From the NCBI GenBank assembly GCA_900318065.1, contig ONIY01000050.1, positions 1 to 40,689 of the forward strand: a DNA stretch of 40,689 nt, in the 5' to 3' direction. The position numbers and the translations under genes were made by a program. Positions 9,950-27,523 of this stretch are shown piece by piece (position 1 is the first letter of the stretch; each line of letters opens with the position of its first letter). A model generated the notes under the pieces. It saw only the letters and a list, made by a program, of their open reading frames with translations, was not told the origin of the DNA and made no database searches. This DNA is from an uncultured Prevotellaceae bacterium. GTDB taxonomy: Bacteria > Bacteroidota > Bacteroidia > Bacteroidales > Muribaculaceae.

Positions 9950-12900
9950 ATGATAAAGAACAGATTTTTCCTGCTGGCGATTGCGGCAATGCTATTGAGC
10001 ACGCTGCAACTTCACGCAAGCGACATTACCGAGACAAAAAAGGATAGTGTGCAACGGGTGATAGCCTCTCTGCTGCCCGAGCACATGGGGATAGGCACTC
10101 TCAAGGCACGGTCGATCGAGGTGGTTGACGACTCCATCAAGGTGGACCTGAGCGAGAACTTTGGCGACGTGCCCTTCACTCGCGAGAGCGTGAGCCGCCT
10201 CAAGAGCGACATCAAGACAGTGATGGGCGACGACTACTCTTCAAGCAACGTCTATCTCACCATCGCTGGCAACGACATCGAGAATTATTTCTCGGAGTTT
10301 GAGGCCACATATCAGCGCAAGCACAACGCCTTTGTCACTCCCATCGACGAGAACCGCCACTACGAGAAGGGCCTGAGCGGCAACATTGTGGCAGTGTGGC
10401 CCAGCCACGGCTGGTACTTCGAGCCCTACCTCAACCGCTGGGAATGGCAGCGCGCCAGGATGTTCCAGACCGTTGAGGACATGTACACCCACAGCTACAT
10501 GATTCCATTCATCATGCCCATGCTTGAGAATGCCGGTGCCTATGTGTGGGACGCTCGCGAGCGCGACACCCACAACTTTGGCGCTGTGGTCGACAACGAC
10601 GGCGGCCATGCCCAGAAGAGCTACCACGAGAACAATGGCAAGAAAAAATGGAAAAAAGGCGACGGCCACGGCTTTGCCTACCATCGCAACGAGTATAAAG
10701 ACTTTGAGAACCCCTTTGAGGAAGGCACCTACCGCATGGTAGAGGCCGAGACCGAGCGCAACAAGCTCGCCACTTGCTCGTGGGATGTGGAGATGCCCGA
10801 GGCGGGAACCTATGCCATCTACGTGAGCTACAAGTCACTGCCCAACAGCGCTCACGACGCCACCTACACCATCAACTCCCTTGAGGAGCCACGACAGTTT
10901 GTCGTAGACCAAACGATGGCTGGCGGTGTGTGGGTCTATCTGGGCTCCTTCCAGCTCGCCAAGGGCTTGAACAAAGACGTGGTGACACTCACCAACAAGT
11001 CGAGTGAGAAGAATGCCGTAATCACCGCCGACGCCATCAAGGTGGGAGGCGGCAAGGGCAACATCGTGCGCCGCGTGGCATTGCCCACCCCCGAGAACAC
11101 TGCCATTGCCGAGAAGAATGGCGACACCAAGTATCTGGGCAAGGAAGGCATCGACTACCAGTATGTGGGCAGCGGGGACCATCCCTGGTTCCACCTGGGC
11201 TCGCGCTACTTCCTGCAGTGGTCGGGATTTCCTCACAAGGTGTACTCCACCAGCGACGGCATCAACGACTATGTGGACGACTACCGCAGCCGTGGCGAGT
11301 GGGTCAACTGGCTCGCTGGCGGCAGCGACGTGCTGCCCGGCAAGCCCGGCCTCAAGGTCCCCGTCGACGTTTCGTTCTGCCTCCACACCGACGCTGGCAC
11401 CACCCAGAACGACGACATCATTGGCACACTGCTCATCTACTGCACCACCAAGAACGGAAAGCAGTTTGGAAAATATGAGAACGGCACTCCACGTGAGCTG
11501 TCGAGGCAGTTTGCCAATATTGTCTCGACCGAGGTGGTCAACGACATCCGCGCCAAGTACGAGCCCAACTGGACCCGTCGCGGCATGTGGGACAAGAGCT
11601 ACTACGAGGCACGCGTCCCCGAGGTGCCCGCACTGCTCATGGAGCTGCTCTCGCACCAGAACTTCGCCGACATGAAATACGGTCTCGACCCCCAGTTCCG
11701 CTTCGACGTGAGCCGCGCTATCTACAAGGGCATTGCCAAGTTCATTGCCAAGCGCGACCACCGCGAGTGCGTGATACAACCACTGCCCGTCAATTCCTTT
11801 GCCATCAACAAGGTGAGTGACAACCTATTCATGCTCAACTGGCAACCCACCGCCGACCCCCTGTGCTCCTGCGCCGATGCCAAGAAATACATCATCCTCG
11901 AGCAGGTGGGCGACGGCGGATTCAAGGAGATTGACGTCACCGACCAGTTGTTCTGCTCGGTACTCATCAGCGACAACGAGATTCACAGCTACAAGATTAT
12001 TGCCATGAACGACGGCGGACGCAGCTTCCCCAGCGAGACGCTAAGCGTGGGAGTGGCACGCGACAGCAAGGGCACTGTGATGGTTGTCAACAACTTCACC
12101 CGAGTGAGCGGTCCCGACTGGTTCGACAGCGGCAAGATGGCTGGGTTCTACGACAACAAGGACCACGGCGTGCCCTACATGGAGCAAATCAACTACCTGG
12201 GATCGCAGTTTGAGTTCCGCCGCCATCTCCAGTGGCGCGACGATGACGCCCCAGGCTTCGGGGCCTGCCGCAGCAACCATGAGACCGAGAACATTGCCGG
12301 CAACACCTTCAACTACCCCGCCATCCACGGCAAAGCCATCATGAAGGCAGGATATTCGTTTGTCTCTACCAGCGCCAAGGCGCTGGAGAACGGCACTGCC
12401 GAAGTGGGCGACTGCAAACTCATCGACATCATCATGGGCAAGCAGAAGGAGATTCCCACAGGGCGTGGCGCCAAGCCTTCACGCTTCAAGGCTTTCACTC
12501 CCGGCTTGATGAATGCCATCACAGGCCTCACCCGCAATGGCGCCAGCGTGCTCATGACCGGTGCCTACGTGGGCAGCGACATCTGGGACAAGGAGAACCC
12601 CTCGGGCAGCGAGAAAAACTTCGCGCAAAACGTGATGGGATACACATGGGTTGATGGCCGTGCCACACTCATGGGCGAGGCCTACAGCGTGCCCACAGCC
12701 CTCAAGATGAGCGACGGCATGACCAGCCTCACCTTCCACAACACCCTCAACAGCGACTTCTATGCCGTGGAGTCGCCCGACGCCATCAAGGCCAGCGACA
12801 GCAAGGGTGCTACCATCCTGCGCTACAAGGAGAACAACATCCCCGCCGGCATTGCCTCGAGCCGCAGCGGCTACAAGACAGTTGTGGTGGGCTTCCCATT

Positions 12901-12973
12901 TGAGACCATCAAGAACGAGAGCGAGCGCAACGAGTTCATGCAGCGCGTGCTCAACTTCTTCGAGAACAAATAA
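9950..12973 (+). CDS. Golvesin-domain protein with split amidase-like catalytic domain (formerly 'xanthan lyase')
   Basis: 1007 residues with a signal peptide (about 1-23, ending LQLHAS). I recognise the Bacteroidota family called golvesin C-terminal-like or 'xanthan lyase'. Four residues echo the Amidase_3 zinc set: H153 in WPSHGW, E176 in FQTVEDMY, H479 in CLHTDAG and E565 in LLMELLSHQN. The stretch between E176 and H479 is interrupted by a beta-rich golvesin/CBM-like domain (about 250-365: AGTYAIYVSYKSLPNSAHDATYTI, WVYLGSFQLAKG). After about 610 a fibronectin-like segment and a DUF-type C-terminal region follow. I infer a periplasmic or surface peptidoglycan amidase, first gene of the salvage operon; polysaccharide lyase activity has no support in the sequence. 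Confidence 0.75.
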   Translation: MIKNRFFLLAIAAMLLSTLQLHASDITETKKDSVQRVIASLLPEHMGIGTLKARSIEVVDDSIKVDLSENFGDVPFTRESVSRLKSDIKTVMGDDYSSSNVYLTIAGNDIENYFSEFEATYQRKHNAFVTPIDENRHYEKGLSGNIVAVWPSHGWYFEPYLNRWEWQRARMFQTVEDMYTHSYMIPFIMPMLENAGAYVWDARERDTHNFGAVVDNDGGHAQKSYHENNGKKKWKKGDGHGFAYHRNEYKDFENPFEEGTYRMVEAETERNKLATCSWDVEMPEAGTYAIYVSYKSLPNSAHDATYTINSLEEPRQFVVDQTMAGGVWVYLGSFQLAKGLNKDVVTLTNKSSEKNAVITADAIKVGGGKGNIVRRVALPTPENTAIAEKNGDTKYLGKEGIDYQYVGSGDHPWFHLGSRYFLQWSGFPHKVYSTSDGINDYVDDYRSRGEWVNWLAGGSDVLPGKPGLKVPVDVSFCLHTDAGTTQNDDIIGTLLIYCTTKNGKQFGKYENGTPRELSRQFANIVSTEVVNDIRAKYEPNWTRRGMWDKSYYEARVPEVPALLMELLSHQNFADMKYGLDPQFRFDVSRAIYKGIAKFIAKRDHRECVIQPLPVNSFAINKVSDNLFMLNWQPTADPLCSCADAKKYIILEQVGDGGFKEIDVTDQLFCSVLISDNEIHSYKIIAMNDGGRSFPSETLSVGVARDSKGTVMVVNNFTRVSGPDWFDSGKMAGFYDNKDHGVPYMEQINYLGSQFEFRRHLQWRDDDAPGFGACRSNHETENIAGNTFNYPAIHGKAIMKAGYSFVSTSAKALENGTAEVGDCKLIDIIMGKQKEIPTGRGAKPSRFKAFTPGLMNAITGLTRNGASVLMTGAYVGSDIWDKENPSGSEKNFAQNVMGYTWVDGRATLMGEAYSVPTALKMSDGMTSLTFHNTLNSDFYAVESPDAIKASDSKGATILRYKENNIPAGIASSRSGYKTVVVGFPFETIKNESERNEFMQRVLNFFENK

Positions 12974-13027
12974 ATCATCTCACACAATTCATTCAACGCC
13001 AATTAATAATCAATCATAAATTATATC

Positions 13028-14533
13028 ATGACAAAAATCAATTGCTTTATCCCCTTTGCCAGCGCCGAGCAGGCACAGGCTACTGTCGACGGATTGAAGT
13101 CCAATCCATTAGTGAACAAAATCTTCTTGCTGGCTGGCGACGACGCCCAAGGCACCATCGAGGGCTGTGAAATGCTCAAGGTGAACAACCTCACCTCGAC
13201 TGCCACCATCAAGGCTATCGCCGAGCACAGCGACGCTTGCGTGACTTTGCTTTACACTAAATATGTGACTCTCAAGTTTGCGCCTTTCGCCATTGAGCGT
13301 TTCGTGAAGATTCTTGCCGACACCCAGAGTGGTATGGTATATGCCGACCACTACAACGTGACCGACAAAGGTGCCGACAAGGCTCCCGTAATCGACTACC
13401 AGATGGGCTCGCTGCGCGACGACTTCGACTTTGGTTCGGTAATGGTGTTCTGTGCCGAGTGCTTCAAGAAGGCTGCTGCTGCCATGAAGGCGACCTACGA
13501 GCATGCCGGCCTCTATGACCTGCGCCTGAAGCTGTCGCAGCATTGCGCTATCACCCACATCAACGAGTTCCTCTACAGCGACGTGGAGCTCGACACCCGC
13601 AAGAGTGGCGAGAAGATCTTCGACTATGTAGACCCACGCAACCGTGGCCGCCAGATTGAGATGGAGGCTGCATGCACCGAGCACCTCAAGGAGATAGGCG
13701 GCTACCTGGCTCCCACTAAGGTAGTCGACGGCAAGGAAGTGCCCAACTTCAAGCACATCGAGTTTGACCACGACAAGTTTGAGGTAGAAGCCACTGTGAT
13801 GATACCAGTGCGCAACCGCATCCGCACCATCCGCGACGCCATCGACAGCGTGCTGCGCCAGAAGACCAACTTCAAGTTCAACCTCATGGTAGTTGACAAC
13901 TTCTCTACCGATGGCACTCGCGAGGCTATCGCCGCCTACGACGACCCACGCCTGATCCACATCATCGCCGACTACTACGACATGGGAATTGGCGGTTACT
14001 GGAACCTTGCCGCTCACCACGAGAAGGCTGGAAAATTTGTGGTGCAACTCGACAGCGACGACATGTACAAGGATGAGAACACGCTGCAAACTATGGTCAA
14101 CGCCTTCTACGAGCAGAACGTGGCAATGGTGGTGGGCACCTATCTGATGACCGACATCAACTGCAACCCCATTCCTCCCGGCGTGATCGACCACAAGGAG
14201 TGGACTCCCGAGAACGGCCGCAACAACGCCCTGCGCATCAACGGCCTGGGAGCGCCACGTGCCTTCTACACTCCAGTGCTTCGCGAGGTGATGCTGCCCA
14301 ACACCAGCTACGGCGAGGACTATGCCCTGGGCCTGAATATCTCGCGCACCTACCAGATAGGCCGCGTGTATGAGCCCGTGTACCTGTGCCGCCGCTGGGA
14401 CGACAACAGCGATGCCAACGTCGACGTTGTTAAGATGAACAACAACAACCTCTACAAGGACCGCATGCGCACCTGGGAGCTCATGGCACGCATCGCCATG
14501 AACAAGAAAGAGTGCTGTTGCTGCTGCAAGTAA
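13028..14533 (+). CDS. Two-domain family 2 glycosyltransferase with penta-cysteine C-terminus
   Basis: 501 residues. The C-terminal half (from about 256: ATVMIPVRNRIRTIRDAIDS) is a classical GT-A family 2 domain with a metal-binding QLDSDDMY motif (D342-D345) and VVDNFSTDGTREA. The N-terminal half looks like a degenerate second GT-A fold (YADHYNVTD..., IDYQMGSLRDDFDFGSVMVF). No membrane segment, so a cytoplasmic enzyme moving a sugar from a nucleotide donor; acceptor unknown. The protein ends KKECCCCCK: five consecutive cysteines encoded by TGC TGT TGC TGC TGC, unusual for a soluble protein. It follows the golvesin gene by 54 bases and precedes the DUF4922 gene by 11, so its product probably belongs to the same pathway. 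Confidence 0.85.
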   Translation: MTKINCFIPFASAEQAQATVDGLKSNPLVNKIFLLAGDDAQGTIEGCEMLKVNNLTSTATIKAIAEHSDACVTLLYTKYVTLKFAPFAIERFVKILADTQSGMVYADHYNVTDKGADKAPVIDYQMGSLRDDFDFGSVMVFCAECFKKAAAAMKATYEHAGLYDLRLKLSQHCAITHINEFLYSDVELDTRKSGEKIFDYVDPRNRGRQIEMEAACTEHLKEIGGYLAPTKVVDGKEVPNFKHIEFDHDKFEVEATVMIPVRNRIRTIRDAIDSVLRQKTNFKFNLMVVDNFSTDGTREAIAAYDDPRLIHIIADYYDMGIGGYWNLAAHHEKAGKFVVQLDSDDMYKDENTLQTMVNAFYEQNVAMVVGTYLMTDINCNPIPPGVIDHKEWTPENGRNNALRINGLGAPRAFYTPVLREVMLPNTSYGEDYALGLNISRTYQIGRVYEPVYLCRRWDDNSDANVDVVKMNNNNLYKDRMRTWELMARIAMNKKECCCCCK

Positions 14534-14544: not shown

Positions 14545-15444
14545 ATGAATCTTGTACACGAAATAGAAGAGCTTTACTCTCGCCAGTTGAACCAATGGGA
14601 ACTGGCGAGGGTGAACTATGATGCTGTGTCGCACATCAACGTCAAGAAGTTTAATTTCAATGGGCGTGAGATAGTGGCGCAGTTCAACCCTTGCCGCTAC
14701 AAATCGGCTACGGCACAGGTCGACTCCAAGTCACCCAGCGGGCAGGATTGCTTTCTTTGCTCCGAACATCAACCCGTTGAGCAAGAGACCATCATGTGGC
14801 AAGACTCCTACAAGATTCAAATAAACCCCTACCCTATTTTCAACAGGCACCTCACGCTGAGTCACGTTGAGCATCGTCCACAAGCCATCGCTCCACACAT
14901 TGATCCGATGATGATGCTGGCAGAACAGTTGCCAGGCTACGTGCTCTTCTATAACGGTCCCAAATGTGGCGCCTCGGCACCCAATCACCAGCACTTTCAG
15001 GCAGTACCCTTCGATGTGTTGCCATTGTGTCGCGAGGTCATCCACGATGATTGCGACTTGAGCGTTTACTTTCCTTTCTTTCACATTATCAGGAAGGAAG
15101 CAAGCGAAGCAAAGCGCTGGTTTCACGTCTTTGAAGAAGGCATGAAATCTATGAATCCAAATGCCGACGAGCCTCCCCAAAACGTGCTGTGCTGGAGAAC
15201 CAGGAATGAATGGCACATCATCATCATTCCACGCTCAAAGCATCGCCCCAGCTGCTACGGCTATGGCGAAGACCAATTTCTCTTGAGCCCAGCATCGGTC
15301 GAAATGACCGGAGTGTGGCCCATCGCCAGAGAAAGTGACTTTAACCGCATTACTCCTTCATTACTTCAATCCATTACCGAAGAAGTAACTATAAGCGAAA
15401 ATGAGAAAGAACAGATTTTAGAATACTTTATAAATAACGTTTAA
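14545..15444 (+). CDS. DUF4922 HIT/GalT-like protein
   Basis: 299 residues. The motif APNHQHFQ (about 148-155) is the His-x-His-x-Gln active-site signature of the HIT/GalT superfamily, which transfers or phosphorolyses nucleotide monophosphates, as in Ap4A phosphorylase and GDP-L-galactose phosphorylase. CFLC (about 72-75) could bind zinc. Family DUF4922 has no established substrate. Placed between a glycosyltransferase (11 bases upstream) and a SpoIID gene (6 bases downstream) inside a cell-wall sugar operon, it is a candidate nucleotidyltransferase or phosphorylase for a sugar-nucleotide; that is inference. No signal peptide, so cytoplasmic. Confidence 0.8.
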   Translation: MNLVHEIEELYSRQLNQWELARVNYDAVSHINVKKFNFNGREIVAQFNPCRYKSATAQVDSKSPSGQDCFLCSEHQPVEQETIMWQDSYKIQINPYPIFNRHLTLSHVEHRPQAIAPHIDPMMMLAEQLPGYVLFYNGPKCGASAPNHQHFQAVPFDVLPLCREVIHDDCDLSVYFPFFHIIRKEASEAKRWFHVFEEGMKSMNPNADEPPQNVLCWRTRNEWHIIIIPRSKHRPSCYGYGEDQFLLSPASVEMTGVWPIARESDFNRITPSLLQSITEEVTISENEKEQILEYFINNV

Positions 15445-15450: not shown

Positions 15451-16788
15451 ATGGCACAAGTTCCACAAGTGAGAGTAGGCATCATGAATGAGCCTATTGT
15501 TGAGTTCGTTCTCAACAACTATTACCTTGTCAATGGAGAGAAAGTGACTGGCAACCAGCTGGTTCAATGTGTAGATGGCATGGTGCAGTGGAATGGCAAG
15601 AAATACAACGACTTGCTCTTTGAACCCATCAATGCCGACAGTGACTCGTTCACACTCGAGAATGTGACGATTGGTGTGAGTTTCCACTGGAAACGCAAGG
15701 AAGACCAGACCTTCCGCGGCGCTCTGCACCTGATTGTGGAGAACGACCGCATCACCACCATCAACATCCTCTCGGTAGAGGAATACCTGCTCAGCGTCAT
15801 CTCCAGCGAGATGAGCGCCACGGCATCGCTCGAGCTGCTGAAGGCGCACGCCGTGATCTCGCGCAGCTGGCTACTGGCGCAAATCAACAAGGACAATGAC
15901 ACTGCTCTCGACCATGACCCTGGACTGCATCAGGAGTTTGCCGCAAGCAACGATGACGAGGAAATCAAGTGGTGGGACCGCGACGACCATGTGAACTTCG
16001 ACGTGTGTGCCGACGACCACTGCCAGCGATATCAAGGCATCACGCGCGCCTCGACCGAGGCGGTGCGACAGGCCATTGAGGCCACTTGGGGACAAGTGCT
16101 CATGTATGGCGGCGAACTGTGCGATGCCCGCTTCTCCAAGTCGTGCGGCGGCGTGTATGAGCAATTCGAGAACTGCTGGCAAGACGACCATCACCCCTAC
16201 CTGGTGGCTCGCCGCGACGATGACGATGAGATGAACTTCCCCGACCTCACTCGCGAGGACAACGCTGCCGACTGGATTCTCTCGTCGCCACACGCCCATT
16301 GCAACACCACCGACAAGGAAATCCTCTCGCAGGTGCTCAACGACTACGACCAGGAGACCACCGATTTCTATCGCTGGCGCGTGGAATACACGCAAGACGA
16401 GTTGAGCAAGCTCATCAAGGAGCGCACCGGCAACGACTACGGCCGCATCATCGACCTTGAGCCCGTGGCTCGTGGCACCAGCGGACGATTGTTCAAGCTG
16501 CGCATCGTGGGCGAGAAGATGACCAAAGTGATTGGCAAGGAACTCTCTATACGCTACGCCCTGTCGCCATCATGCCTCTACAGCTCGGCTTTCATCGTCG
16601 AGAAAATCAACGAGATCCCCGACGGCTTCCCCGAGAAATTCATCCTGCGCGGAGCAGGATGGGGACACGGCGTGGGACTGTGCCAGATAGGCGCCGCAGT
16701 AATGGGCGCCAAGGGCTACAACTACCAGCAAATCCTGCTGCACTACTTCATCGACGCACAAGTCAAGACCAACCCTATATTTTATTGA
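15451..16788 (+). CDS. SpoIID/LytB-domain protein without signal peptide
   Basis: 445 residues with the SpoIID signatures: VEEYLLSVISSEM and LKAHAVISRSW (about 111-140), a Cys/His-rich insertion including CADDHCQRYQGI, SKSCGGVYE, and near the end GAGWGHGVGLCQIGA (about 401-415). SpoIID proteins are lytic transglycosylases acting on peptide-free glycan strands; LytB relatives enhance amidases. No signal peptide or membrane segment is present (MAQVPQVRVGIMNEPIVEFV), so it is predicted cytoplasmic, where it could act on imported fragments. The last nine codons (KTNPIFY and stop at 16786) overlap, one frame off, with codons that read as the N-terminus of the following AmpG-like permease. Confidence 0.87.
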   Translation: MAQVPQVRVGIMNEPIVEFVLNNYYLVNGEKVTGNQLVQCVDGMVQWNGKKYNDLLFEPINADSDSFTLENVTIGVSFHWKRKEDQTFRGALHLIVENDRITTINILSVEEYLLSVISSEMSATASLELLKAHAVISRSWLLAQINKDNDTALDHDPGLHQEFAASNDDEEIKWWDRDDHVNFDVCADDHCQRYQGITRASTEAVRQAIEATWGQVLMYGGELCDARFSKSCGGVYEQFENCWQDDHHPYLVARRDDDDEMNFPDLTREDNAADWILSSPHAHCNTTDKEILSQVLNDYDQETTDFYRWRVEYTQDELSKLIKERTGNDYGRIIDLEPVARGTSGRLFKLRIVGEKMTKVIGKELSIRYALSPSCLYSSAFIVEKINEIPDGFPEKFILRGAGWGHGVGLCQIGAAVMGAKGYNYQQILLHYFIDAQVKTNPIFY

Positions 16789-19368: not shown

Positions 19369-22167
19369 ATGGACGAGAAGCACAAAACATACTTGAAGCG
19401 CATCAAGGGATTCATCCCAAGCGACCGCATCTACACCGACGACCTGCACTGCCTGGCGTGGGGTACCGATGCTGGCTTCTACCGCAACATCCCGCAGGTG
19501 GTGGTGCGCTCAATGGATGAGCACGAGGTGTCGCAACTGCTCGCCATCGCCCATGAGATGCAGTTGCCGGTAACCTTCCGTGCTGCCGGCACCAGCCTGA
19601 GCGGACAGACCAACTCCGACTCCATCCTCATCGTCGCCGGCAAGAACTGGGAGCACTATGAGGTGGCGCCCGACGCCAGCTACATCAAGCTGCAGCCAGG
19701 ACTGGTGGGCAGCGAGGTCGACAAGATTCTCGCGCGCCACAACCGCGCCTTCACCCCCGACCCTGCCAGCAAGAACTCGGCAATGGTGGGAGGCATCGTC
19801 ATCAACAACGCCAGCGGCATGAGCTGTGGCACCCATGCCAACAGCGACCGCATGATGCTATCAATGCGCATCGTCCTGGCCGATGGCACAGTGCTCGACA
19901 CTGGCGACGAGGCAAGCCGCAACGCCTTCAAGCAGTCGCACCCCGAGTTCATTGACCGCATCGAGGAGATTCGCGACCGGGTAATTGCCGACAAGGAGCT
20001 CGTCGACCGCATCCGTCACAAGTATGCCATCAAGAACGTGACTGGATTGAACATCTCGCCATTTGTGCTCTACCGCGACCCCTTCGACATCATCACCCAC
20101 CTCATCGTGGGTAGTGAGGGCACACTCGCCTTTGCCAGCGAGTTCACAATGAAGACTGGTCACCTCTACCCCTGCCGCGCCAGCGCTATGCTCTATTTCC
20201 AGGACATGCGCGAGAGCTGCGAGGCAGTGGTGGCGATGAAGAAAGGTCCCGTGCACTGTGCCGAGATTCTCGACAAGAAATCGCTCGCCAGCGTCGACGA
20301 CACCACCGGCGAGGGCCTCACCGCAGTACTCATCCAAACCTTTGCCGACAGCAACGACGAGCTGCAGAGCAACATCAACGAGATAATGGCGATTCTCGAG
20401 CCATTCCACCTCTTTGTCCCTGCCGTCTTCACCAGCGACCCCAAGGTCTATGGCAAGTACTGGGCCATTCGCTCGGGCATCTTCCCCAGCGTGGGTGGCA
20501 CGCGCCCCCTGGGCACCACAGTGCTCATCGAGGACGTGGCGTTCCACATCGAGGATCTGCCACAAGCCACTGTCGACCTGGCTCAGATGCTTGAAGACTA
20601 CGGCTACGACGACAGCTGCATCTACGGCCATGCCCTTGAGGGCAACTACCATTTCATCATCTCGCAGTCGTTTGACACTCAAGAGGAAATCAAGCGCTAC
20701 GAGAACCTCATGCGAGCTGTGGTGGAACTGGTGATCGACAAGTATGACGGTTCGCTCAAGGCCGAGCACGGCACAGGCCGCAACATGGCGCCATTTGTCA
20801 AGAAAGAATGGGGCGAGAAGGCCTACCAGGTGATGCTCGACGTGAAGCAGCTCTTCGACCCCAAGGGAATCCTCAATCCTGGCGTCATCTTCAACAACGA
20901 CCCCGAGTGCTTCATCAAGAACCTCAAACCCATGCCGTTGACCAACGACAATGTAAACAAGTGCATCGAGTGTGGGTTCTGCGAGGTGAACTGCGTGAGC
21001 AGCGGGCTCACCCTCTCGTCGCGCCAGCGCATCATCGTGCAGCGCGAGATTTCAAGATTAAAAGACTCAGGCGAAGACCCCGAGCGGTTGAAACGCCTTG
21101 AGCAGCAATATAAATACTATGGCGAAGCCACTTGCGCCGCCGACGGCCTGTGCGCAACCTCGTGCCCCATGGGAATCAACGTGGGCGAACTCACCCACGA
21201 CCTGCGTGCTCAGCACAACGGCAAGGGCACTATGGCACACAGCATTGCCAGCAGTGTGGCACGGCATTTTGCAACGACAAAAGGCAGCCTCAAGTCGCTG
21301 CTCTACATCGCCAGCGCTGCCCACACAGTGCTTGGCGACAGCGGTGTGAAAGCCGTGGGCAAGGCGATGCACGCCCTGGGCGCACCATTGTGGACTCCCT
21401 CCACGCCCCAGCCTCACAAGATGAAGCCTTTGCATCAGAGCGAAAGCGACAAGAAGGTGGTGTACTTCCCCAGCTGCCTCAACCAGGCACTGGGTCGTGA
21501 CAAGCATGGTGTGGAAGTTGACTTGGTCGACAAGGTGGTAGCTTTCCTGGGCAAGGCGGGATGGGAAGTCATCTATCCCGAGGGCATGAGCAACCTGTGC
21601 TGCGGCATGATTTGGAACAGCAAGGGAATGCCCGACATTGCTCAGCAGAAGACTGCCGAGCTCGAGCAGGCACTCCTCAAGGCGAGCGAGGGCGGCAAGC
21701 TGCCCATCGTGTGCGACCAGAGCCCCTGCCTGCACCACATGCGCCAGCACATGGAACAAGTCAAGCCACTCGAACTCATGGAGTTCATCCACGACTATGT
21801 GGCGCAAGACCTTGAGTTCACCCCCACCAGCGAGCCCATCGCCCTGCACCTCACCTGCTCCACCCGCCTGATGAAGATCGACGACAAAGTGCTCGACCTT
21901 GCCAAGCGGTGCTCAACCAGCGTTCTCATCCCCGAGGGAGTGGGATGCTGCGGCTTTGCCGGCGACAAGGGATTTACTCACCCCGAGCTAAATGCCTATG
22001 CCCTGCGCAAACTGCGCCCGCAAATCGATGCGGCAGGCATCAAGCGTGGCTTCAGCAACAGCCGCACCTGCGAGATAGGGCTCACCACCCACAGCGGAGT
22101 GCCCTACCAGTCGCTCATCTACCTCATCGACGAAGTGACAAAATATTGCGGTAAGTCTCACCAATAG
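19369..22167 (+). CDS. FAD/Fe-S D-lactate dehydrogenase-like oxidoreductase (Dld-II/GlcD-GlcF fusion)
   Basis: 932 residues in one chain: a FAD-binding PCMH domain (about 38-210, with FRAAGTSLSGQTNSD and DPASKNSAMVGGIVINNASG), a FAD-oxidase C-terminal domain (about 220-480, ending YDGSLKAEHGTGRNMAPF), a ferredoxin-like part with CIECGFCEVNC (532-542) and CAADGLCATSC (589-599), and two CCG domains (FPSCLNQ...CCGMIW; HLTCSTRL...GVGCCGFAGDKG). This order and length match Dld-II-type quinone-linked D-lactate dehydrogenases; glycolate oxidase GlcD/GlcF is the main alternative. Lying between namZ and murT/K/Q, it fits as the enzyme that oxidises D-lactate released by MurQ, feeding electrons to the respiratory chain. 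No signal peptide; peripheral at the inner membrane by inference. Confidence 0.85.
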   Translation: MDEKHKTYLKRIKGFIPSDRIYTDDLHCLAWGTDAGFYRNIPQVVVRSMDEHEVSQLLAIAHEMQLPVTFRAAGTSLSGQTNSDSILIVAGKNWEHYEVAPDASYIKLQPGLVGSEVDKILARHNRAFTPDPASKNSAMVGGIVINNASGMSCGTHANSDRMMLSMRIVLADGTVLDTGDEASRNAFKQSHPEFIDRIEEIRDRVIADKELVDRIRHKYAIKNVTGLNISPFVLYRDPFDIITHLIVGSEGTLAFASEFTMKTGHLYPCRASAMLYFQDMRESCEAVVAMKKGPVHCAEILDKKSLASVDDTTGEGLTAVLIQTFADSNDELQSNINEIMAILEPFHLFVPAVFTSDPKVYGKYWAIRSGIFPSVGGTRPLGTTVLIEDVAFHIEDLPQATVDLAQMLEDYGYDDSCIYGHALEGNYHFIISQSFDTQEEIKRYENLMRAVVELVIDKYDGSLKAEHGTGRNMAPFVKKEWGEKAYQVMLDVKQLFDPKGILNPGVIFNNDPECFIKNLKPMPLTNDNVNKCIECGFCEVNCVSSGLTLSSRQRIIVQREISRLKDSGEDPERLKRLEQQYKYYGEATCAADGLCATSCPMGINVGELTHDLRAQHNGKGTMAHSIASSVARHFATTKGSLKSLLYIASAAHTVLGDSGVKAVGKAMHALGAPLWTPSTPQPHKMKPLHQSESDKKVVYFPSCLNQALGRDKHGVEVDLVDKVVAFLGKAGWEVIYPEGMSNLCCGMIWNSKGMPDIAQQKTAELEQALLKASEGGKLPIVCDQSPCLHHMRQHMEQVKPLELMEFIHDYVAQDLEFTPTSEPIALHLTCSTRLMKIDDKVLDLAKRCSTSVLIPEGVGCCGFAGDKGFTHPELNAYALRKLRPQIDAAGIKRGFSNSRTCEIGLTTHSGVPYQSLIYLIDEVTKYCGKSHQ

Positions 22168-22210: not shown

Positions 22211-23368
22211 ATGGCAAAAGACTCAAAACGACTCCTCTCGCTCGACATACTGCGAGGAATTACAATAGCCGGCATGCTCCTGGTGAACAATCCTGGCACG
22301 TGGAGCCACCTCTACGCTCCACTCGAGCACGCCCAGTGGATAGGGCTCACGCCCACCGACCTGGTGTTCCCCTTCTTCATGTTTTTGATGGGCGTGTCGA
22401 TGTATTTCTCGCTGCGCAAGTTCAACTTCAAGCTCAGCGGCAGCCTCATGCTCAAGATTTGCCGGCGCACCATCATCCTCTTCCTCATTGGCTGGATGGT
22501 GCAGTGGTTTGGAATGTGGCTGCGAGGCCTCTACGACCCCGAGTCGCACTTCTTCACCCGCATGTTTGGCGACCTGCGCATCCTGGGCGTGTTCCAGCGC
22601 CTGGCACTGGTCTACTTCTTTGGCTCGATGACGGCAGTGCTGTTCAAGAGCAAGTTCATCCCCTGGATAATAGGTCTCATCCTCGTTGCCTATGCCATAA
22701 TACTGGGCTTTGGCAATGGCTATGAGTTCTCGCTCGACAACATCCTCTCGCGAGTAGACTGCGCCATCCTGGGCGAGGACCACATGTATCATGAGGAGGC
22801 GTTTGGCCAGAAGCTTGCCCTCGACCCCGAGGGAATTCTCAGCACCCTGCCATGCATCGCCCATGTGCTCATAGGCTTCATGATGGGCAAGTGCATCAAC
22901 ACCGTGCACAACAACCGCGACCGCATCGTCGAGATTGCCGTGTGGGGAGCACTGATGCTGCTTGTGGGATGGCTATTGCAATATGGCATCCCTTGCAGCA
23001 AGAAGGCGTGGACCTCGAGCTACGTGCTCATCACCTGTGGCATGGCGTCGTGCATCCTAGCAATGCTCATCTATGCCATCGACATCAAGGGCCACAACCG
23101 GTGGTGCCGCTTCTTCCAGGCCTTTGGCATCAACCCGCTCTTCTGCTACCTCGTGGGCACCGTGCTCGCTATCGCCTTTGGAGCAGTGCGCTTTGGCACT
23201 AACGCCAGTGGCGACCCCATCACCGCCCACTCTCTCATCTACGACGCCTGGAGCGCCGTCACCACCACTCCTGAGGCCGCCTCATGCCTCTATGCCATCA
23301 CCTTTGTGCTCATCACCTGGTGCTTTGGCTACATCCTCTACAAGAAGAAAATCTACATCAAGATATAA
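22211..23368 (+). CDS. murT: MurT-like inner-membrane MurNAc transporter (DUF5009/acyltransferase-like family)
   Basis: 385 residues with about ten membrane segments and the family opening LLSLDILRGITIAGMLLVNN, then HAQWIGLTPTDLVFPFFMFLMGVSM and RRTIILFLIGW. This family includes the heparan-alpha-glucosaminide N-acetyltransferase-like/NagX proteins and the Tannerella forsythia protein MurT, shown to import MurNAc. Immediately downstream are murK (64-base gap) and murQ, the same order as in T. forsythia, so transport of MurNAc across the inner membrane is the best call. A sugar acetyltransferase role cannot be excluded from sequence. Confidence 0.85.
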   Translation: MAKDSKRLLSLDILRGITIAGMLLVNNPGTWSHLYAPLEHAQWIGLTPTDLVFPFFMFLMGVSMYFSLRKFNFKLSGSLMLKICRRTIILFLIGWMVQWFGMWLRGLYDPESHFFTRMFGDLRILGVFQRLALVYFFGSMTAVLFKSKFIPWIIGLILVAYAIILGFGNGYEFSLDNILSRVDCAILGEDHMYHEEAFGQKLALDPEGILSTLPCIAHVLIGFMMGKCINTVHNNRDRIVEIAVWGALMLLVGWLLQYGIPCSKKAWTSSYVLITCGMASCILAMLIYAIDIKGHNRWCRFFQAFGINPLFCYLVGTVLAIAFGAVRFGTNASGDPITAHSLIYDAWSAVTTTPEAASCLYAITFVLITWCFGYILYKKKIYIKI

Positions 23369-23432: not shown

Positions 23433-24275
23433 ATGATTTTAATTGCTGATTGCGGATCCACCAAGATTGACTGGTGTCTGCTAGACGGAAAAAAGAAAGT
23501 TGCTCAAATCTTCACCACCGGCATGAACGCACTGCTCATGACCGAGGAAGAAATGGCCGAGTGCATCATGACCGAACTCATGCCCAGCCTTCAGGGCTAT
23601 GACGTGACCGAGATTTACTACTATGGCGCCGGCATCATTAGCGACGAAATCAAGAATCAGGTTGTCAACGCTCTCAAGCGCAATATGCCCAACGTGACCA
23701 AGATAGAGGTCGACAGCGACCTGCTTGCAGCTGCACGTGCACTGTGCCAGCACGAGCCAGGCATAGCATGCATTCTGGGCACTGGCAGCAACAGCTGCTA
23801 CTACGACGGCGAGAAAGTGGTCGACAATGTGTCGCCACTGGGCTATATCCTGGGCGATGAGGGAAGCGGTGCCGTGCTGGGCAAGCTCCTCGTGGGCGAC
23901 GTGCTCAAGAAGCAGCTGCCCGAGCACCTGTGCGAGAAGTTTCTCAAGGAGTACAACCTCGACCGCAACACCATCATCGACCGCGTGTACCGCAAGCCTG
24001 CCGCCAACCGATTCCTGGCTCAGTTTGCCCCATTCCTTGAGCACAACATCAACGAGCCATCTATCAAGGCTATCGTGATGCGCTCGTTCACCGATTTCTT
24101 TGTGCGCAACGTTGCCAGTTACCCCAACTACAAGGAGCTGCCCTGCAACTTCGTGGGCTCTATCGCACTGCTGCAGAAGGATGTCCTCACCGAGGCCGCC
24201 AGCAAGCTGGGCATCACCATTGGCACCATTATCCAAGCCCCAATGGAAGGACTCATCAAGTACCACTCAGCTTAA
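23433..24275 (+). CDS. murK: MurK-like N-acetylmuramate/N-acetylglucosamine kinase (BadF family)
   Basis: 280 residues with an intact ASKHA nucleotide site: phosphate-1 ADCGSTKIDW (5-14), GTGSNSCYYDG (116-126) and LGDEGSGAVLGKLLVGDVL. MurK-type BadF kinases convert cytoplasmic MurNAc and GlcNAc to the 6-phosphates with ATP. It lies between murT and murQ, giving the order transporter, kinase, etherase. A second copy at 8852 has lost the Gly and Lys of the phosphate-1 loop, so this gene is the likely working enzyme. Start ATG 23433 gives the usual N-terminus two residues before the first strand. Confidence 0.9.
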   Translation: MILIADCGSTKIDWCLLDGKKKVAQIFTTGMNALLMTEEEMAECIMTELMPSLQGYDVTEIYYYGAGIISDEIKNQVVNALKRNMPNVTKIEVDSDLLAAARALCQHEPGIACILGTGSNSCYYDGEKVVDNVSPLGYILGDEGSGAVLGKLLVGDVLKKQLPEHLCEKFLKEYNLDRNTIIDRVYRKPAANRFLAQFAPFLEHNINEPSIKAIVMRSFTDFFVRNVASYPNYKELPCNFVGSIALLQKDVLTEAASKLGITIGTIIQAPMEGLIKYHSA

Positions 24276-24284
24276 TGCGTAATC

Positions 24285-24332
24285 TAAATACTAGAAAATC
24301 TAGAATGTCTAGAAATCTAGAAGAACTTAACA
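24285..24332. repeat. CTAGA / ACTTAACACT word repeats before and across the murQ start
   Basis: CTAGAAAATCTAGAATGTCT followed by AGAAATCTAGAA repeats the word seen at 19330. Two copies of ACTTAACACT follow (24325-24334 and 24339-24348), the second already inside murQ. Confidence 0.7.
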
Positions 24333-24333
24333 C

Positions 24334-25152
24334 TTGAAACTTAACACTAAGATAAGCGAACAACCTTCTCTCTACAACGATCTTGAAAAGAAGAGTGTGC
24401 ACGAGTTGCTCACCGAGATCAACCAGGAAGACCACAAAGTTGCCGACGCCGTGCAGAAGACCATCCCGCAGGTCGAGAAACTCGTCACTGGCATTGTCGA
24501 GCGCATGAAGCGCGGAGGACGCGTCTTCTACATGGGTGCTGGCACAAGCGGCAGGCTGGGAGTGCTCGACGCCAGTGAGATTCCTCCCTCCTTTGGCATG
24601 GACCCAGGGTGGATTATAGGCCTCATTGCTGGGGGAGACATTGCCCTGCGAAATGCCGTGGAGAATGCCGAGGACGATGAGCAGCAGGGATGGAAAGACC
24701 TGCAGCAGTACAACATCACCAGCAACGATACCGTGGTGGGAATCGCTGCCAGTGGCACCACTCCCTATGTGATAGGCGCACTGCGCGATGCTCGTGCCCA
24801 CGGATGCCTCACCGCTGCCATCACCAGCAACCCCGACGCCCCCGTGAGCGAGGTTGCCGAGATTGCCATCGAGATGATTGTGGGACCCGAATATGTCACC
24901 GGCAGCAGCCGCATGAAGAGTGGCACAGGCCAGAAGATGATTTGCAACATGATCTCCACCAGTGTCATGATCCAAATGGGGCGCGTCAAGGGCAACAAGA
25001 TGGTGAACATGCAGCTCACCAACAAGAAACTCGTGGACCGCGGCACACGCATGGTGGTCGAAGAGCTTGGACTAGGCTACGACGAAGCCAAGCGCCTGCT
25101 CCTGCTCCACGGCAGCGTGAAAAAAGCCTGCGATGCCTATCGTGGGAACTAG
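24334..25152 (+). CDS. murQ: N-acetylmuramic acid 6-phosphate etherase
   Basis: 272 residues of a SIS-fold etherase that splits MurNAc-6-P into GlcNAc-6-P and D-lactate. The family motifs are clear: FYMGAGTSGRLGVLDASEIPPSFG (65-88, with E82 as a catalytic acid), NAEDDEQQG (111-119, E113), GIAASGTTPYVIGAL and SSRMKSGTGQK. The start must be the TTG at 24334 (no in-frame ATG nearby), which yields MKLNTKISEQPSLYNDLEKKS, matching the family N-terminus. That start lies within a repeated word (ACTTAACACT twice), and residues 2-6 are encoded by the second copy, so the repeat seems to have overrun the original start. Slightly shorter than the E. coli protein (298), lacking only a C-terminal extension. 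Confidence 0.93.
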   Translation: MKLNTKISEQPSLYNDLEKKSVHELLTEINQEDHKVADAVQKTIPQVEKLVTGIVERMKRGGRVFYMGAGTSGRLGVLDASEIPPSFGMDPGWIIGLIAGGDIALRNAVENAEDDEQQGWKDLQQYNITSNDTVVGIAASGTTPYVIGALRDARAHGCLTAAITSNPDAPVSEVAEIAIEMIVGPEYVTGSSRMKSGTGQKMICNMISTSVMIQMGRVKGNKMVNMQLTNKKLVDRGTRMVVEELGLGYDEAKRLLLLHGSVKKACDAYRGN

Positions 25153-25154
25153 TG

Positions 25155-25358
25155 CAGAGTACAGAGTACACAGTACAGAGTACAGAGTACAGAGTACAAA
25201 GGACGAAGTACTAAGGACTAAGGACAAAGTAATAATTCCAGCTCCCGCTCCCCCGGAACTTCCGGAAAACCCGGAACTTCCGGAAAACCCGGGACCTCCG
25301 GGACCTCCGGGAAAAACTGACTACTGATAACTGACTACTGATAACTGACTACTTACTA
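25155..25358. repeat. Composite word-repeat spacer (GTACAGA, CCGGAACTT, ACTGATA)
   Basis: The 209-base gap between murQ and the SGNH gene has no gene. It is built of three blocks: GAGTACAGAGTACA words (25155-25200), AAGGAC/AAAGTA words to about 25230, CCGGAACTTCCGGAAAAC and GGGACCTCCGG copies (25255-25314), then CTGACTACTGATAA copies (25317-25358) ending just before the ATG. Each block is strongly self-similar and partly palindromic. Confidence 0.8.
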
Positions 25359-25361
25359 CTC

Positions 25362-26033
25362 ATGAAACGTTTTATTTTAATATTAATAGCGGCGGTGGCT
25401 GCTGTGACTGCAATGCAGGCGCAGCCACCGGCACGCACTGCCAATCAGGACAAGTACTACGTGCGCCGCGCTACCCACTTCGATGACCTGCCCGTCTACC
25501 GTCGCGACATCATCATGCTGGGCAACAGCCTCACCGACGGTGCCGAGTGGAACGAGCTGCTGCGCAACCCGCACGTGAAGAACCGCGGCATCATTGGCGA
25601 CATTGTGCAAGGACTATATGAGCGCATGGAGCCCATCCTCAAGGGCAAGCCCCGCAAGATTTTCATCCTCAGCGGCGTGAACGACGTGTCGCACGGCGTG
25701 GATGGCGACAGCATTGCACGGGCGATGGAGAAACTCATTGTCCTGATCAAGCAACGCTCGCCCAGGACAAAAATCTACCTGCAGTCGATGCTGCCCTTCA
25801 ACACCGACGTGCAGATGTGGAAACTGCTAAAAGACCGCGAGCAAGTGGTGATCGACGGCAACCGCGCCATGGAAGAGGTGTGCAAGCGGCAGCATGTCAC
25901 CTGGATCAACCTCTACCCTCTCTTCGTGGACAAGAACGGCAAGCTGCGCGAAGAACTCACCAACGACGGCCTGCACCTGCTGGGACCAGGCTACCTGATT
26001 TGGCGCGATGCCATCCTGAAGTACACCCGATAG
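25362..26033 (+). CDS. Secreted SGNH/GDSL hydrolase
   Basis: 223 residues with a signal peptide (about 1-20, ending MQAQ). SGNH blocks: GNSLTDG with nucleophile S56, RGIIGD, the block III GVND, and NDGLHLLGPGY with D202 and H205. The family contains esterases that remove acetyl groups from sugars. Last gene of the salvage operon, before the terminator at 26134. Removing O-acetyl groups from MurNAc, which otherwise block muramidases, would suit the location, but is inference; sialate or xylan esterases share the fold. Confidence 0.85.
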   Translation: MKRFILILIAAVAAVTAMQAQPPARTANQDKYYVRRATHFDDLPVYRRDIIMLGNSLTDGAEWNELLRNPHVKNRGIIGDIVQGLYERMEPILKGKPRKIFILSGVNDVSHGVDGDSIARAMEKLIVLIKQRSPRTKIYLQSMLPFNTDVQMWKLLKDREQVVIDGNRAMEEVCKRQHVTWINLYPLFVDKNGKLREELTNDGLHLLGPGYLIWRDAILKYTR

Positions 26034-26133
26034 CATCTCAACATCTAAACATAATTTTGCCATTAGTGGCTATCGGCCAAAATGAGTGGTGCAAAGTGAT
26101 GAAGAGTTAATGTCATAGCACCTCTCTCAAAGC

Positions 26134-26168
26134 AAAAAAGACTCCCAGGAATTTTGGGAGTCTTTTTT
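26134..26168. terminator. Bidirectional intrinsic terminator
   Basis: AAAAAA-GACTCCCA (26140-26147), 7-base loop, TGGGAGTC (26155-26162)-TTTTTT. The symmetrical A and T tracts let it stop both the salvage operon and the leftward tRNA-His transcript. Confidence 0.9.
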
Positions 26169-26174
26169 GTGGTG

Positions 26175-26301: not shown

Positions 26302-26356
26302 CACTTACCTGATTTTTTTGTTGATTTTTCTTTTTTGCCCCCCTGCTTGAGGTGCC

Positions 26357-27523
26357 TCACGCGTTCTCCTTGAGGTTCACCATCTGTCCCATGCAGTACA
26401 CTGCATGCAGCTTGATGTCCTTATCGAGGATGATGACATCGGCATCCTTGCCACGCTGCAGCGAGCCCTTGCGGTCGTAGACGCCCATGATGCGGGCAGG
26501 CGTCTCGGCAACCATGCGGCAAGCGTCCTGCAGTGGAATCTCGGCCATGTGCACGGCAGTGGCTATCAGGCGGTCCATCGTGGCGATGCTGCCTGCCAGT
26601 GCCGAGCGGTCGGCGAGTTTGCACACTCCATCCTCGATGATTACACGCGGGTCAAACGCCTTGTTGCTGTCGCTGGCAGCCACCGCCAGGGCATCGGTCA
26701 CCATCGCTGTGCGCTCCACGCCCTTAGTGTGGTACACCAGTTTGAGCAGCGTGGGCGGCACGTGGATGCCATCGGCAATCATCTCCACCGTCATGTTCTC
26801 CATCAGGTAAACCGCCTCGACAGTGCCGGCGTGCTTGAACTCTCGCACGTTGTGGAAGCCAGGCATGCCGTTGTAGAAATGGGTGGCGTGGGTATATCCT
26901 GCCTCGTAGGCCTCCTTCACGTGGTCATACTCGGCAGCGGTGTGGGCTATTGAGGGCAACACGTCCTTAGCCGTGAGATACCTGCCCATCTCTATCACGC
27001 CAGGCAGCTCGGGAGCCGAGTCCCAACGCTTGATGCAGTTGAAATCCTCCACCACGTGCTCATACTCGTTGGGGTCGGGCAGGCGAATGAGCTCAGGCAT
27101 CTGGGCACCAGCCTTCAACGGGTTGAAATAGGGCCCCTCAAGGTGCAGTCCCAGCACCCCGCTGAAGGGGTCCTCGATGAGTTCGTCGCAGGTTTGGGCT
27201 GCAGTCTCAATCATGGGCAGTGTTGCCGACGACAACGTGGGGAATATCGACGTTGTGCCATGACGGCGATGAGCCATCACAGCGGCGCGGAACGCCTCCT
27301 CGGTGCCCTCCATGAAGTCGTGGCCTCCACCGCCATGGCAATGAAGCTCTATGCCACCCGGAACCACATGCATCCCCAGGGCGTTTATCGCCGTGTCGGC
27401 ACGTGGCTCGATGTGGCTGTTCTTGCGGATCTCCACTATGCGTGAGTCCTCAAAGAGCAGCGAGCCACCATTTATCCACCCCGATGGAGTGAGTATATGA
27501 CCGTTGTAAATCTGGGTTAACAT
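26357..27523 (-). CDS. nagA: N-acetylglucosamine-6-phosphate deacetylase
   Basis: 388 residues of an amidohydrolase that converts GlcNAc-6-P to glucosamine-6-P and acetate. Metal and active-site residues are visible: H61 and H63 in ELHCHGGGGHDF, E129 in GLHLEGPYF, H194 in SIAHTAAEYDHV, H215 in HATHFYNGM and the catalytic D277 in MVTDALAV. It takes the product of MurQ, so it completes the salvage route although it lies beyond tRNA-His on the opposite strand with its own promoter. nagB is not in the window. Cytoplasmic, full length. Confidence 0.94.
   Translation of the reverse strand: MLTQIYNGHILTPSGWINGGSLLFEDSRIVEIRKNSHIEPRADTAINALGMHVVPGGIELHCHGGGGHDFMEGTEEAFRAAVMAHRRHGTTSIFPTLSSATLPMIETAAQTCDELIEDPFSGVLGLHLEGPYFNPLKAGAQMPELIRLPDPNEYEHVVEDFNCIKRWDSAPELPGVIEMGRYLTAKDVLPSIAHTAAEYDHVKEAYEAGYTHATHFYNGMPGFHNVREFKHAGTVEAVYLMENMTVEMIADGIHVPPTLLKLVYHTKGVERTAMVTDALAVAASDSNKAFDPRVIIEDGVCKLADRSALAGSIATMDRLIATAVHMAEIPLQDACRMVAETPARIMGVYDRKGSLQRGKDADVIILDKDIKLHAVYCMGQMVNLKENA

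What the first reader, a model, noticed from the sequence alone, without database searches (positions are those of the whole stretch)
9950..27523. One transcript appears to encode a complete peptidoglycan-sugar salvage route
Eleven same-strand genes lie between a -7 box at 9907 and a bidirectional terminator at 26134. In order they include an amidase-like protein, SpoIID, AmpG, NamZ, MurT, MurK, MurQ and an SGNH esterase, with nagA just beyond. NamZ, MurT, MurK and MurQ have known roles in MurNAc release, import, phosphorylation and cleavage, and the order murT-murK-murQ matches Tannerella forsythia. The unusual part is the breadth: several uncharacterised members (GT2, DUF4922, cytoplasmic SpoIID) travel inside it and so become candidates for new steps.
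Basis: partly seen in the sequence, partly recalled or inferred. Interest (0 to 1): 0.7.

Follow-up and report, generated by a model that had tools for sequence, protein, structure and literature searches.

The report
Cell-wall sugar salvage operon, Muribaculaceae
The window carries a gut-bacterial version of a known cell-wall salvage operon, with an added enzyme that probably burns the lactate released, in a genome that seems to have lost the genes for making the cell-wall sugar itself, which may explain why this bacterial group grows better with neighbours.

Summary
The cluster is real: eleven same-strand genes, 9950-26033, between a -7 box and a strong terminator, with no other -7 box inside. 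It is not new as a kind. Tannerella forsythia has the same nine genes in the same order, shown by RT-PCR to be one transcript (2017). It probably oxidises the D-lactate that MurQ releases, and it precedes murT in 38 of 41 DUF4922-anchored loci with murT. GT2-DUF4922-SpoIID form a cytosolic module (fused in 26 of 135 loci), reaction unknown. The window's ampG lacks its 5' end. The largest result lies outside the window: this draft genome has no detectable MurA or MurB. Of 91 scorable family genomes (of 99), 31 of 36 with the operon's dehydrogenase form lack both, against 3 of 55 without it; clades are shared, so these are not independent events. The family is Muribaculaceae, the genus most likely Sodaliphilus ('loves a companion'), whose type species is boosted by other bacteria. 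I predict MurNAc auxotrophy. S. pleomorphus itself could not be searched.

The parts
5923..8517 (+). Secreted amidase: Amidase_3 plus Big_5, dockerin and weak (below cut-off) T9SS-tail domains; upstream neighbour of the operon
   Evidence: relatives (u1) in the same place, e.g. L038-L040
8852..9721 (+). MurK-related sugar kinase, in the position of T. forsythia K1058; -7 box at 8779
   Evidence: PMC10465942 passages
9907..9914 (+). Bacteroidota -7 box TAAATTTG, probable operon promoter (-33 element not clear)
   Evidence: consensus recalled
9950..12973 (+). Amidase-like protein with golvesin domain and signal-peptide-like start (the 'xanthane lyase' of the T. forsythia operon, by position)
   Evidence: golvesin 8.9e-23; Amidase_3 25.3 bits, just under its cut-off 27; motifs HG at 153, LHTDAG at 478, LMELLSHQ at 563
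13028..14533 (+). Soluble GT2, two GT-A-like halves; the second keeps DSDD (342-345) and GED (429-431) in 30 of 30 rows
14545..15444 (+). DUF4922: Ap4A-phosphorylase/GalT-like histidine-triad enzyme; CFLC in 31 of 31 rows, HxHxQ in 30 of 31
15451..16788 (+). SpoIID/LytB-domain protein without signal peptide; Glu118 in 106 of 106 rows (window counted twice)
16841..18052 (+). AmpG-family permease, 5'-truncated in this assembly
18070..19329 (+). NamZ exo-N-acetylmuramidase with signal-peptide-like start
19369..22167 (+). FAD-linked oxidase fused to GlpC/GlcF-like Fe-S domains; predicted D-lactate dehydrogenase; only match of its kind in the genome at E <= 1e-10
22211..23368 (+). MurT (MurNAc transporter by position; NagX/HGSNAT superfamily by sequence)
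23433..24275 (+). MurK-type MurNAc kinase (BadF/NagK-like, below cut-offs)
24334..25152 (+). MurQ, MurNAc-6-phosphate etherase (start codon uncertain)
   Evidence: TIGR00274 311.3 bits, cut-off 302
25362..26033 (+). SGNH/GDSL esterase with signal-peptide-like start
   Evidence: present in 22 of 38 family loci with the dehydrogenase
26132..26170 (.). Bidirectional terminator-like stem
26357..27523 (-). NagA, GlcNAc-6-phosphate deacetylase, separate transcript
   Evidence: TIGR00221 236.7 bits, cut-off 225.65; -7 box at 27592 (-)

Best explanation
This is the Muribaculaceae form of the Tannerella forsythia muropeptide/MurNAc salvage operon, in a bacterium that probably cannot make MurNAc. Inferred route: secreted amidases strip stem peptides; NamZ frees MurNAc outside the inner membrane; AmpG and MurT import sugar fragments and MurNAc. 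Part of the MurNAc is turned into UDP-MurNAc by an AmgK-RapZ fusion protein and a MurU-like enzyme encoded elsewhere, bypassing the missing MurA and MurB. The surplus is phosphorylated by MurK, cleaved by MurQ to GlcNAc-6-phosphate and D-lactate, and deacetylated by NagA; the FAD/Fe-S dehydrogenase oxidises D-lactate to pyruvate and feeds the electrons to the respiratory chain. GT2-DUF4922-SpoIID is a cytosolic module acting on imported glycan, step unknown. Shown here by sequence: gene content and order, conservation, domain families and key motifs, lack of signal peptide on SpoIID, absence of MurA and MurB matches in the assembly. Shown in T. forsythia by others: co-transcription, MurT/MurK uptake, MurK and MurQ activities, AmpG function. 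Inferred: every activity in this organism, the substrate of the dehydrogenase, and the auxotrophy.
For: Same gene order as the RT-PCR-proven T. forsythia unit with a K1058-like kinase upstream. No internal -7 box. MurA: 0 matches in G000 (control rings in 14 of 14 genomes, over the cut-off in 10); MurB 0 (control 10 of 14). In 99 family genomes MurA is over its cut-off in 60; MurB is matched in 57, 55 over the cut-off. Cross-table of the 91 scorable genomes: with the dehydrogenase form of the operon 31 lack both and 5 have both; without it 3 lack both and 52 have both. At completeness 98% or more: 10 of 15 against 0 of 39. Order-wide MurA is matched in 146 of 149 genomes, 141 over the cut-off. 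AmgK/RapZ-like and MurU-like neighbours in G000. Dehydrogenase directly before murT in 38 of 41 DUF4922-anchored loci incl. the window; present in 56 of 80 named murT loci and in 29 of 29 titled Muribaculaceae. Sodaliphilus: MurT tree and published growth habit (PMC7738495 passages) resembling MurNAc-limited T. forsythia (PMC5790795 passages).
Against: G000 is a 97-contig, 93.85% complete assembly, so its own absences are weak. Five genomes with the operon keep MurA and MurB, including a congener (G186), so the operon alone does not prove auxotrophy; two more keep MurA only (G152, G173). Five genomes with sub-cut-off MurA matches (G172, G175, G195, G218, G234), which I read as AroA-like, were scored as lacking MurA. 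On the tree of cluster genes the operon form changes state only 2 times and MurA/MurB absence 5 times; the independent-pairs test had 2 pairs and no power. AmgK and MurU models match far below cut-off (41.6 of 550 and 146.3 of 250 bits), and 99 of 99 genomes have a sub-cut-off MurU match, prototrophs included. The dehydrogenase fails the curated cut-offs of GlcD and YdiJ, and related genes next to GT2-DUF4922 occur without murQ in L127, L134, L137, so D-lactate is not the only candidate substrate. The window's ampG is truncated. MurC-MurF were not sought.
Confidence: 0.75

Rival explanations
1. Prototroph with a catabolic operon: the organism makes its own MurNAc and uses the operon only to eat or recycle peptidoglycan; MurA and MurB were missed in the assemblies.
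For: Five genomes with the operon have both enzymes, among them G186 of the same genus; G109 with the operon (L010) has MurA; assemblies are drafts.
Against: Two consecutive enzymes are missing together in 31 genomes; at completeness of 98% or more, 10 of 15 operon genomes lack both against 0 of 39 others.
Confidence: 0.2
2. The dehydrogenase serves another substrate (glycolate, D-2-hydroxyglutarate or the like) and is linked to the operon for another reason.
For: Below the curated cut-offs of GlcD (195.7 of 567.9 bits) and YdiJ (125.5 of 1350); GT2-DUF4922-dehydrogenase without murQ in L127, L134, L137.
Against: Directly before murT in 38 of 41 loci; MurQ releases D-lactate from MurNAc-6-phosphate (PMC3022706 and PMC5790795 passages); LctD and D-lactate dehydrogenases are among the solved relatives, together with glycolate oxidase and D-2-hydroxyglutarate dehydrogenase.
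Confidence: 0.2
3. GT2-DUF4922-SpoIID makes or edits an unrelated intracellular glycan and only shares the promoter.
For: DUF4922 (with or without GT2) has none of the other cluster genes nearby in 10 of 20 phylum-level loci; GT2 resembles chondroitin and heparosan synthases in overall architecture.
Against: Of 96 Bacteroidales loci with GT2, DUF4922 and SpoIID, 87 also have AmpG; SpoIID, AmpG or NamZ lie near DUF4922 in 6 of 20 phylum loci; fusions in 26 of 135 loci.
Confidence: 0.25

Closest known systems
Tannerella forsythia Tanf_08345-08385 operon (ampG-murTKQ)
   Same: Nine genes in the same order, MurK-like kinase upstream, host lacks MurA and MurB (PMC5388701, PMC7670621, PMC10465942, passages)
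   Different: Here a FAD/Fe-S dehydrogenase is inserted between namZ and murT and an SGNH esterase follows murQ; in T. forsythia murQ is the last gene. Control by GppX not tested here. Sequences were not compared directly; the match rests on published gene names and order.
AmgK-MurU anabolic MurNAc salvage (Pseudomonas)
   Same: AmgK-like and MurU-like genes adjacent in G000
   Different: The AmgK-like protein is fused to a RapZ C-terminal domain; both are below the curated cut-offs
Shewanella oneidensis Dld (SO_1521) and GlcD/GlpC-type D-2-hydroxyacid dehydrogenases
   Same: FAD-dependent enzyme of the same broad class (PMC5432575 passages; large Fe-S chain of SO_1521 recalled)
   Different: No direct sequence comparison made; here next to MurT-MurK-MurQ instead of a lactate permease gene
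SpoIID lytic transglycosylases
   Same: TIGR02669 166.7 bits over cut-off 83.3; conserved Glu and Cys/His residues
   Different: No hydrophobic start in any of 103; fused to DUF4922 or GT2-DUF4922 in 19 of 135 loci, so read as cytosolic
Yeast Ap4A phosphorylase Apa2, ADP-glucose phosphorylase, GalT
   Same: Fold and HxHxQ motif of DUF4922 (motif role recalled)
   Different: Substrate unknown; identity 16-18% to Apa2 and 9-13% to the listed ADP-glucose phosphorylase, GalT-like and uridylyltransferase structures

Membership tests
T. forsythia-type muropeptide/MurNAc salvage operon | Order amidase-like, GT, second 'GT', SpoIID/LytB, AmpG, NamZ, MurT, MurK, MurQ | tested here: met
   against the gene list of PMC5388701; T. 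forsythia sequences themselves not compared
T. forsythia-type muropeptide/MurNAc salvage operon | One transcript | not testable with these tools
   only indirect: no internal -7 box
T. forsythia-type muropeptide/MurNAc salvage operon | Host lacks MurA and MurB | tested here: met
   (draft assembly, 93.85% complete)
MurQ etherase | Equivalog model TIGR00274 over cut-off | tested here: met
NamZ | NamZ_N and NamZ_C domains with export signal | tested here: met
   (signal judged by hydropathy)
MurK / NagK-type kinase | Curated model over cut-off | tested here: not met
   BadF 23.4 of 31.5 bits; NagK 30.7 of 370; kinase role rests on position and on the T. forsythia work
MurT MurNAc transporter | Transports MurNAc | not testable with these tools
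   Sequence places it with NagX and HGSNAT, membrane N-acetyltransferases; PMC5790795 passage calls Tf_MurT a sodium-symporter relative
AmpG permease | Full-length permease | tested here: not met
   403 aa, N-terminal stretch missing; TIGR00901 176.6 of 350 bits; longer in the 18 close loci printed
D-lactate dehydrogenase | Oxidises D-lactate | not testable with these tools
   FAD and Fe-S domains present
GlcD / YdiJ equivalogs | Curated NCBIfam cut-off | tested here: not met
   195.7 of 567.9; 125.5 of 1350 bits
SpoIID lytic transglycosylase | SpoIID/LytB domain with catalytic Glu | tested here: met
   that this Glu is the catalytic one is recalled
SpoIID lytic transglycosylase | Exported | tested here: not met
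   0 of 103 with a hydrophobic start against 92% of 72 NamZ
GalT/Apa histidine-triad nucleotidyltransferases | Fold and HxHxQ | tested here: met
   (one of 31 rows HMYFQ)

The most novel reading that the evidence does not exclude
A large lineage of gut and rumen Muribaculaceae, including Sodaliphilus, cannot make MurNAc and lives on the cell walls of its neighbours. The operon is the marker of this dependence, it respires the D-lactate half of MurNAc, and it carries a cytosolic GT2-DUF4922-SpoIID enzyme complex that performs a salvage step not yet described, for instance opening or phosphorolysing imported anhydro-disaccharides in cells that mostly lack AnmK (4 of 99 have it).
Probability: 0.45. 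Interest if true: 0.85.

Novelty: new variant of a known kind. Interest (0 to 1): 0.66.

Why it matters
In the open-access library, phrases for MurNAc auxotrophy occur in 12 papers, 11 of them listed; the titles and abstract starts shown name no auxotroph other than T. forsythia. I did not read most of these texts. If a common gut lineage shares the trait, that gives a concrete reason why such bacteria are hard to grow alone, a one-ingredient cultivation test, and a cross-feeding dependence in gut and rumen. The operon also offers two testable enzyme assignments: a D-lactate dehydrogenase tied to MurQ, and a cytosolic SpoIID module.

Tried and rejected
Idea that cytosolic SpoIID replaces AnmK: not supported as a correlation. 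AnmK is in 4 of 99 family genomes (G168, G173, G188, G208), all four with the operon, and the genomes without DUF4922 lack AnmK as well.

Idea that MurU marks the auxotrophs: 99 of 99 genomes have a match, all below the cut-off, so it does not discriminate.

Idea that MurA/MurB absence is a draft artefact: did not explain the split at completeness of 98% or more. The Fisher p-values printed there ignore kinship, and I do not rely on them.

Tree-based test of association: 2 informative pairs only. That run wrongly included G008, a genome of another family, scored as lacking MurA/MurB; one search repeats the change counts without it.

Search for lactate genes beside the dehydrogenase in other phylum members: the loci have flanks too short to judge. 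Solved-structure search with the amidase-like protein: no match up to E 1. Scan for sigma-70 promoters: 13 found, 10.4 expected, uninformative; terminator scan 15 found, 16.6 expected. One repeat pattern from the window had no exact match in the 262 loci.

Scoring choices and rows dropped: MurA counted as present only over its cut-off; five sub-cut-off genomes (G172, G175, G195, G218, G234) were scored as lacking it. MurB counted as present at E <= 0.001, including G149 and G184 below the cut-off. 'With the operon' means that the dehydrogenase was found in the DUF4922 locus; of these 38 family loci 33 also show murQ, the other five being L039, L050, L063, L069, L074. From the cross-table 8 of 99 genomes were left out: G152, G173, G244 (MurA only), G175, G229 (loci cut at a contig end) and G191, G194, G195 (loci not fetched at the time; G191 was fetched later, and is cut at its contig end). 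The last five lack both enzymes. G-loci and named loci partly come from the same genomes, so their counts are not to be added.


Full report
What is in the window. Eleven + strand genes run from 9950 to 26033: amidase-like protein with a golvesin domain, GT2, DUF4922, SpoIID-domain protein, AmpG, NamZ, a 932-aa FAD/Fe-S dehydrogenase, MurT, MurK, MurQ, SGNH esterase. A -7 box lies at 9907. Of 26 TANNTTTG matches in the window none lies between 9915 and 26051, and a strong stem with A and T runs lies at 26132-26170. The kinase at 8852 has a -7 box of its own at 8779. A second secreted amidase (Amidase_3, dockerin and weak T9SS-tail domains) lies at 5923. nagA is on the other strand, beyond a tRNA-His gene. 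The ampG gene, however, is shorter (403 aa) than in the 18 close loci printed (442-492 aa; three genomes appear twice among them), because the joint with spoIID is about 80 bases shorter than in L073 and L109.

What is already known. In T. forsythia Tanf_08345-08385, annotated as xanthane lyase, gtf, gtf, lytB, ampG, ybbC, murT, murK, murQ, is a single RT-PCR-proven transcript with murQ last (PMC5388701, passages; PMC7670621, passages). A second MurK-like kinase, K1058, lies directly upstream (PMC10465942, passages). The window has the same order. That the second 'gtf' is DUF4922 and 'lytB' is SpoIID is my inference from position and family; no T. forsythia sequence was fetched.

What differs. 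The dehydrogenase sits between namZ and murT. Of the 135 loci anchored on DUF4922 plus the window, 41 contain murT and 38 of these have the dehydrogenase directly before it; the three without are L003, L015, L018, from other families of the order. In 80 named murT loci, the best 80 of a capped list, 56 have it; the 24 without bear titles such as Dysgonomonas, Proteiniphilum, Petrimonas, Paludibacter or unnamed Bacteroidales or Bacteroidia. All 29 loci titled Muribaculaceae have it (some contigs are short). The protein has an FAD-linked oxidase part and Fe-S/CCG parts. Solved relatives include glycolate oxidase, LctD, D-lactate and D-2-hydroxyglutarate dehydrogenases. It is the only match in this genome at E <= 1e-10. 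MurQ releases D-lactate, so D-lactate is the most likely substrate; this is inference, and the curated GlcD and YdiJ cut-offs are not met. An SGNH esterase follows in 22 of 38 family loci with the dehydrogenase and in 40 of 80 named loci.

The uncharacterised members. GT2, DUF4922 and SpoIID occur together in 96 of 115 fetched Bacteroidales loci, and 87 of these 96 also have AmpG. Fusions occur in 26 of 135 fetched loci: GT2-DUF4922 in 7, DUF4922-SpoIID in 17, all three in 2 (ORF calls, not proteins). SpoIID keeps Glu118 in 106 of 106 rows, the window counted twice. DUF4922 was modelled with mean pLDDT 93 and is closest to yeast Ap4A phosphorylase Apa2 (E 4e-11), then ADP-glucose phosphorylase and GalT; HxHxQ is kept in 30 of 31 rows. 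In two plant papers DUF4922 is the domain name given to some members of the GDP-L-galactose phosphorylase family (PMC9871823, PMC11047344, passages). GT2 (mean pLDDT 87) has two GT-A-like halves in the manner of chondroitin polymerase (low global TM-scores of 0.3-0.4); DSDD and GED of the second half are invariant in 30 of 30, and I saw no DxD in the corresponding stretch of the first. A glycosyltransferase next to an NDP-sugar phosphorylase-like enzyme could together release a sugar as sugar-1-phosphate from an imported disaccharide; this is a guess.

MurT. By sequence it belongs with NagX and human HGSNAT, membrane N-acetyltransferases. Transport rests on published T. forsythia work (passages).

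The genome around it. MurA (TIGR01072) has no match in this genome (control rings in 14 of 14 genomes, over the cut-off in 10) and MurB (TIGR00179) none (control 10 of 14). In the 99 family genomes searched, MurA is over its cut-off in 60 and MurB is matched in 57, 55 over the cut-off. I cross-tabulated the 91 that could be scored (scoring choices and the 8 left out are given under tried and rejected): with the dehydrogenase form of the operon 31 lack both and 5 have both (G159, G160, G169, G186, G202); without it 3 lack both (G218, G221, G239; completeness 90, 68, 88) and 52 have both. At completeness of 98% or more it is 10 of 15 against 0 of 39. Elsewhere in the order MurA loss is rare: 146 of 149 have a match, 141 over the cut-off. 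On the cluster-gene tree (78 rows) the operon form changes state 2 times and the absence of MurA and MurB 5 times; every row without the two enzymes in that tree has the operon. This is a strong pattern but few independent events, and the tree is of cluster genes, not of species.

A bypass exists. In G000 a 490-aa protein (APH domain and RapZ C-terminal domain; AmgK model E 8e-11, below cut-off) lies next to a 247-aa nucleotidyltransferase whose best model is MurU (E 1e-42, below cut-off). Sub-cut-off MurU matches occur in all 99 genomes, so the route may be general in the family and would become essential once MurA and MurB are gone.

Which organism. Many of the nearest named murT relatives are titled Muribaculaceae. 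The window falls in a set of 31 rows (SH-aLRT 96) with all five congeners used and both Candidatus Sodaliphilus records. [quoted passage not shown] Its type species grows slowly, only on solid medium, forms irregular rods up to 50 um that shorten and thicken on longer incubation, and is boosted by co-incubation with other isolates (PMC7738495, passages). MurNAc-starved T. forsythia shows thickening and shortening of cells, then fusiform shape (PMC5790795, passages). The parallel is suggestive only; S. pleomorphus was not searched.

Novelty. Phrases for MurNAc auxotrophy gave 12 papers, 11 listed; the titles and abstract starts shown name no auxotroph other than T. forsythia, and in one gut review the phrase occurs only in a T. 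forsythia reference (PMC11382707, passages). A wider search (any 3 of MurNAc auxotroph, MurA, MurB, Muribaculaceae, Bacteroidales) gave 154 papers, of which 20 were listed and none looked relevant beyond T. forsythia. The terms N-acetylmuramic acid, Muribaculaceae, auxotroph and peptidoglycan together gave 0 papers. A Muribaculaceae review does not contain the words peptidoglycan, muramic or auxotroph (PMC11356848, passages). This covers only the open-access library held. The operon is a new variant of a known kind; the predicted auxotrophy of a gut lineage and the dehydrogenase link are, as far as these searches show, unreported.

Noticed in passing
window 8524-8678, 22174-22200, 25151-25360, 39283-39440, 40588-40619, 40666-40689: Intergenic gaps hold tandem arrays, mostly of 7-base units, with different units in different gaps; by my rough gene list 605 array bases lie in non-coding and 99 in coding sequence, although non-coding is 6689 of 40689 bases. 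Period-7 arrays are also the commonest in the named loci of the window's murT clade (20 of 58 arrays, L175-L205) and rarer in other groups (6 of 69, 3 of 31, 2 of 21), but none was found in the five congener loci.
   Followed up: partly
window 16724-16841: ampG lacks its start and N-terminal stretch; the joint with spoIID is about 80 bases shorter than in L073 and L109. Real truncation or assembly fault undecided.
   Followed up: partly
window 14485-14533: The GT2 protein ends in a run of cysteines (ECCCCCK); several close relatives have similar Cys-rich tails, most distant ones do not.
   Followed up: no
L256 (G186:C32:130000-147000): A congener keeps adjacent murA and murB although it has the operon; whether kept or regained was not tested.
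   Followed up: no
L127, L134, L137: GT2-DUF4922 followed directly by the same dehydrogenase family in another family of the phylum, without murQ.
   Followed up: no
window 39855-40514 (-): ORF with GYF_2 and CD225 (interferon-induced transmembrane protein-like) domains.
   Followed up: no
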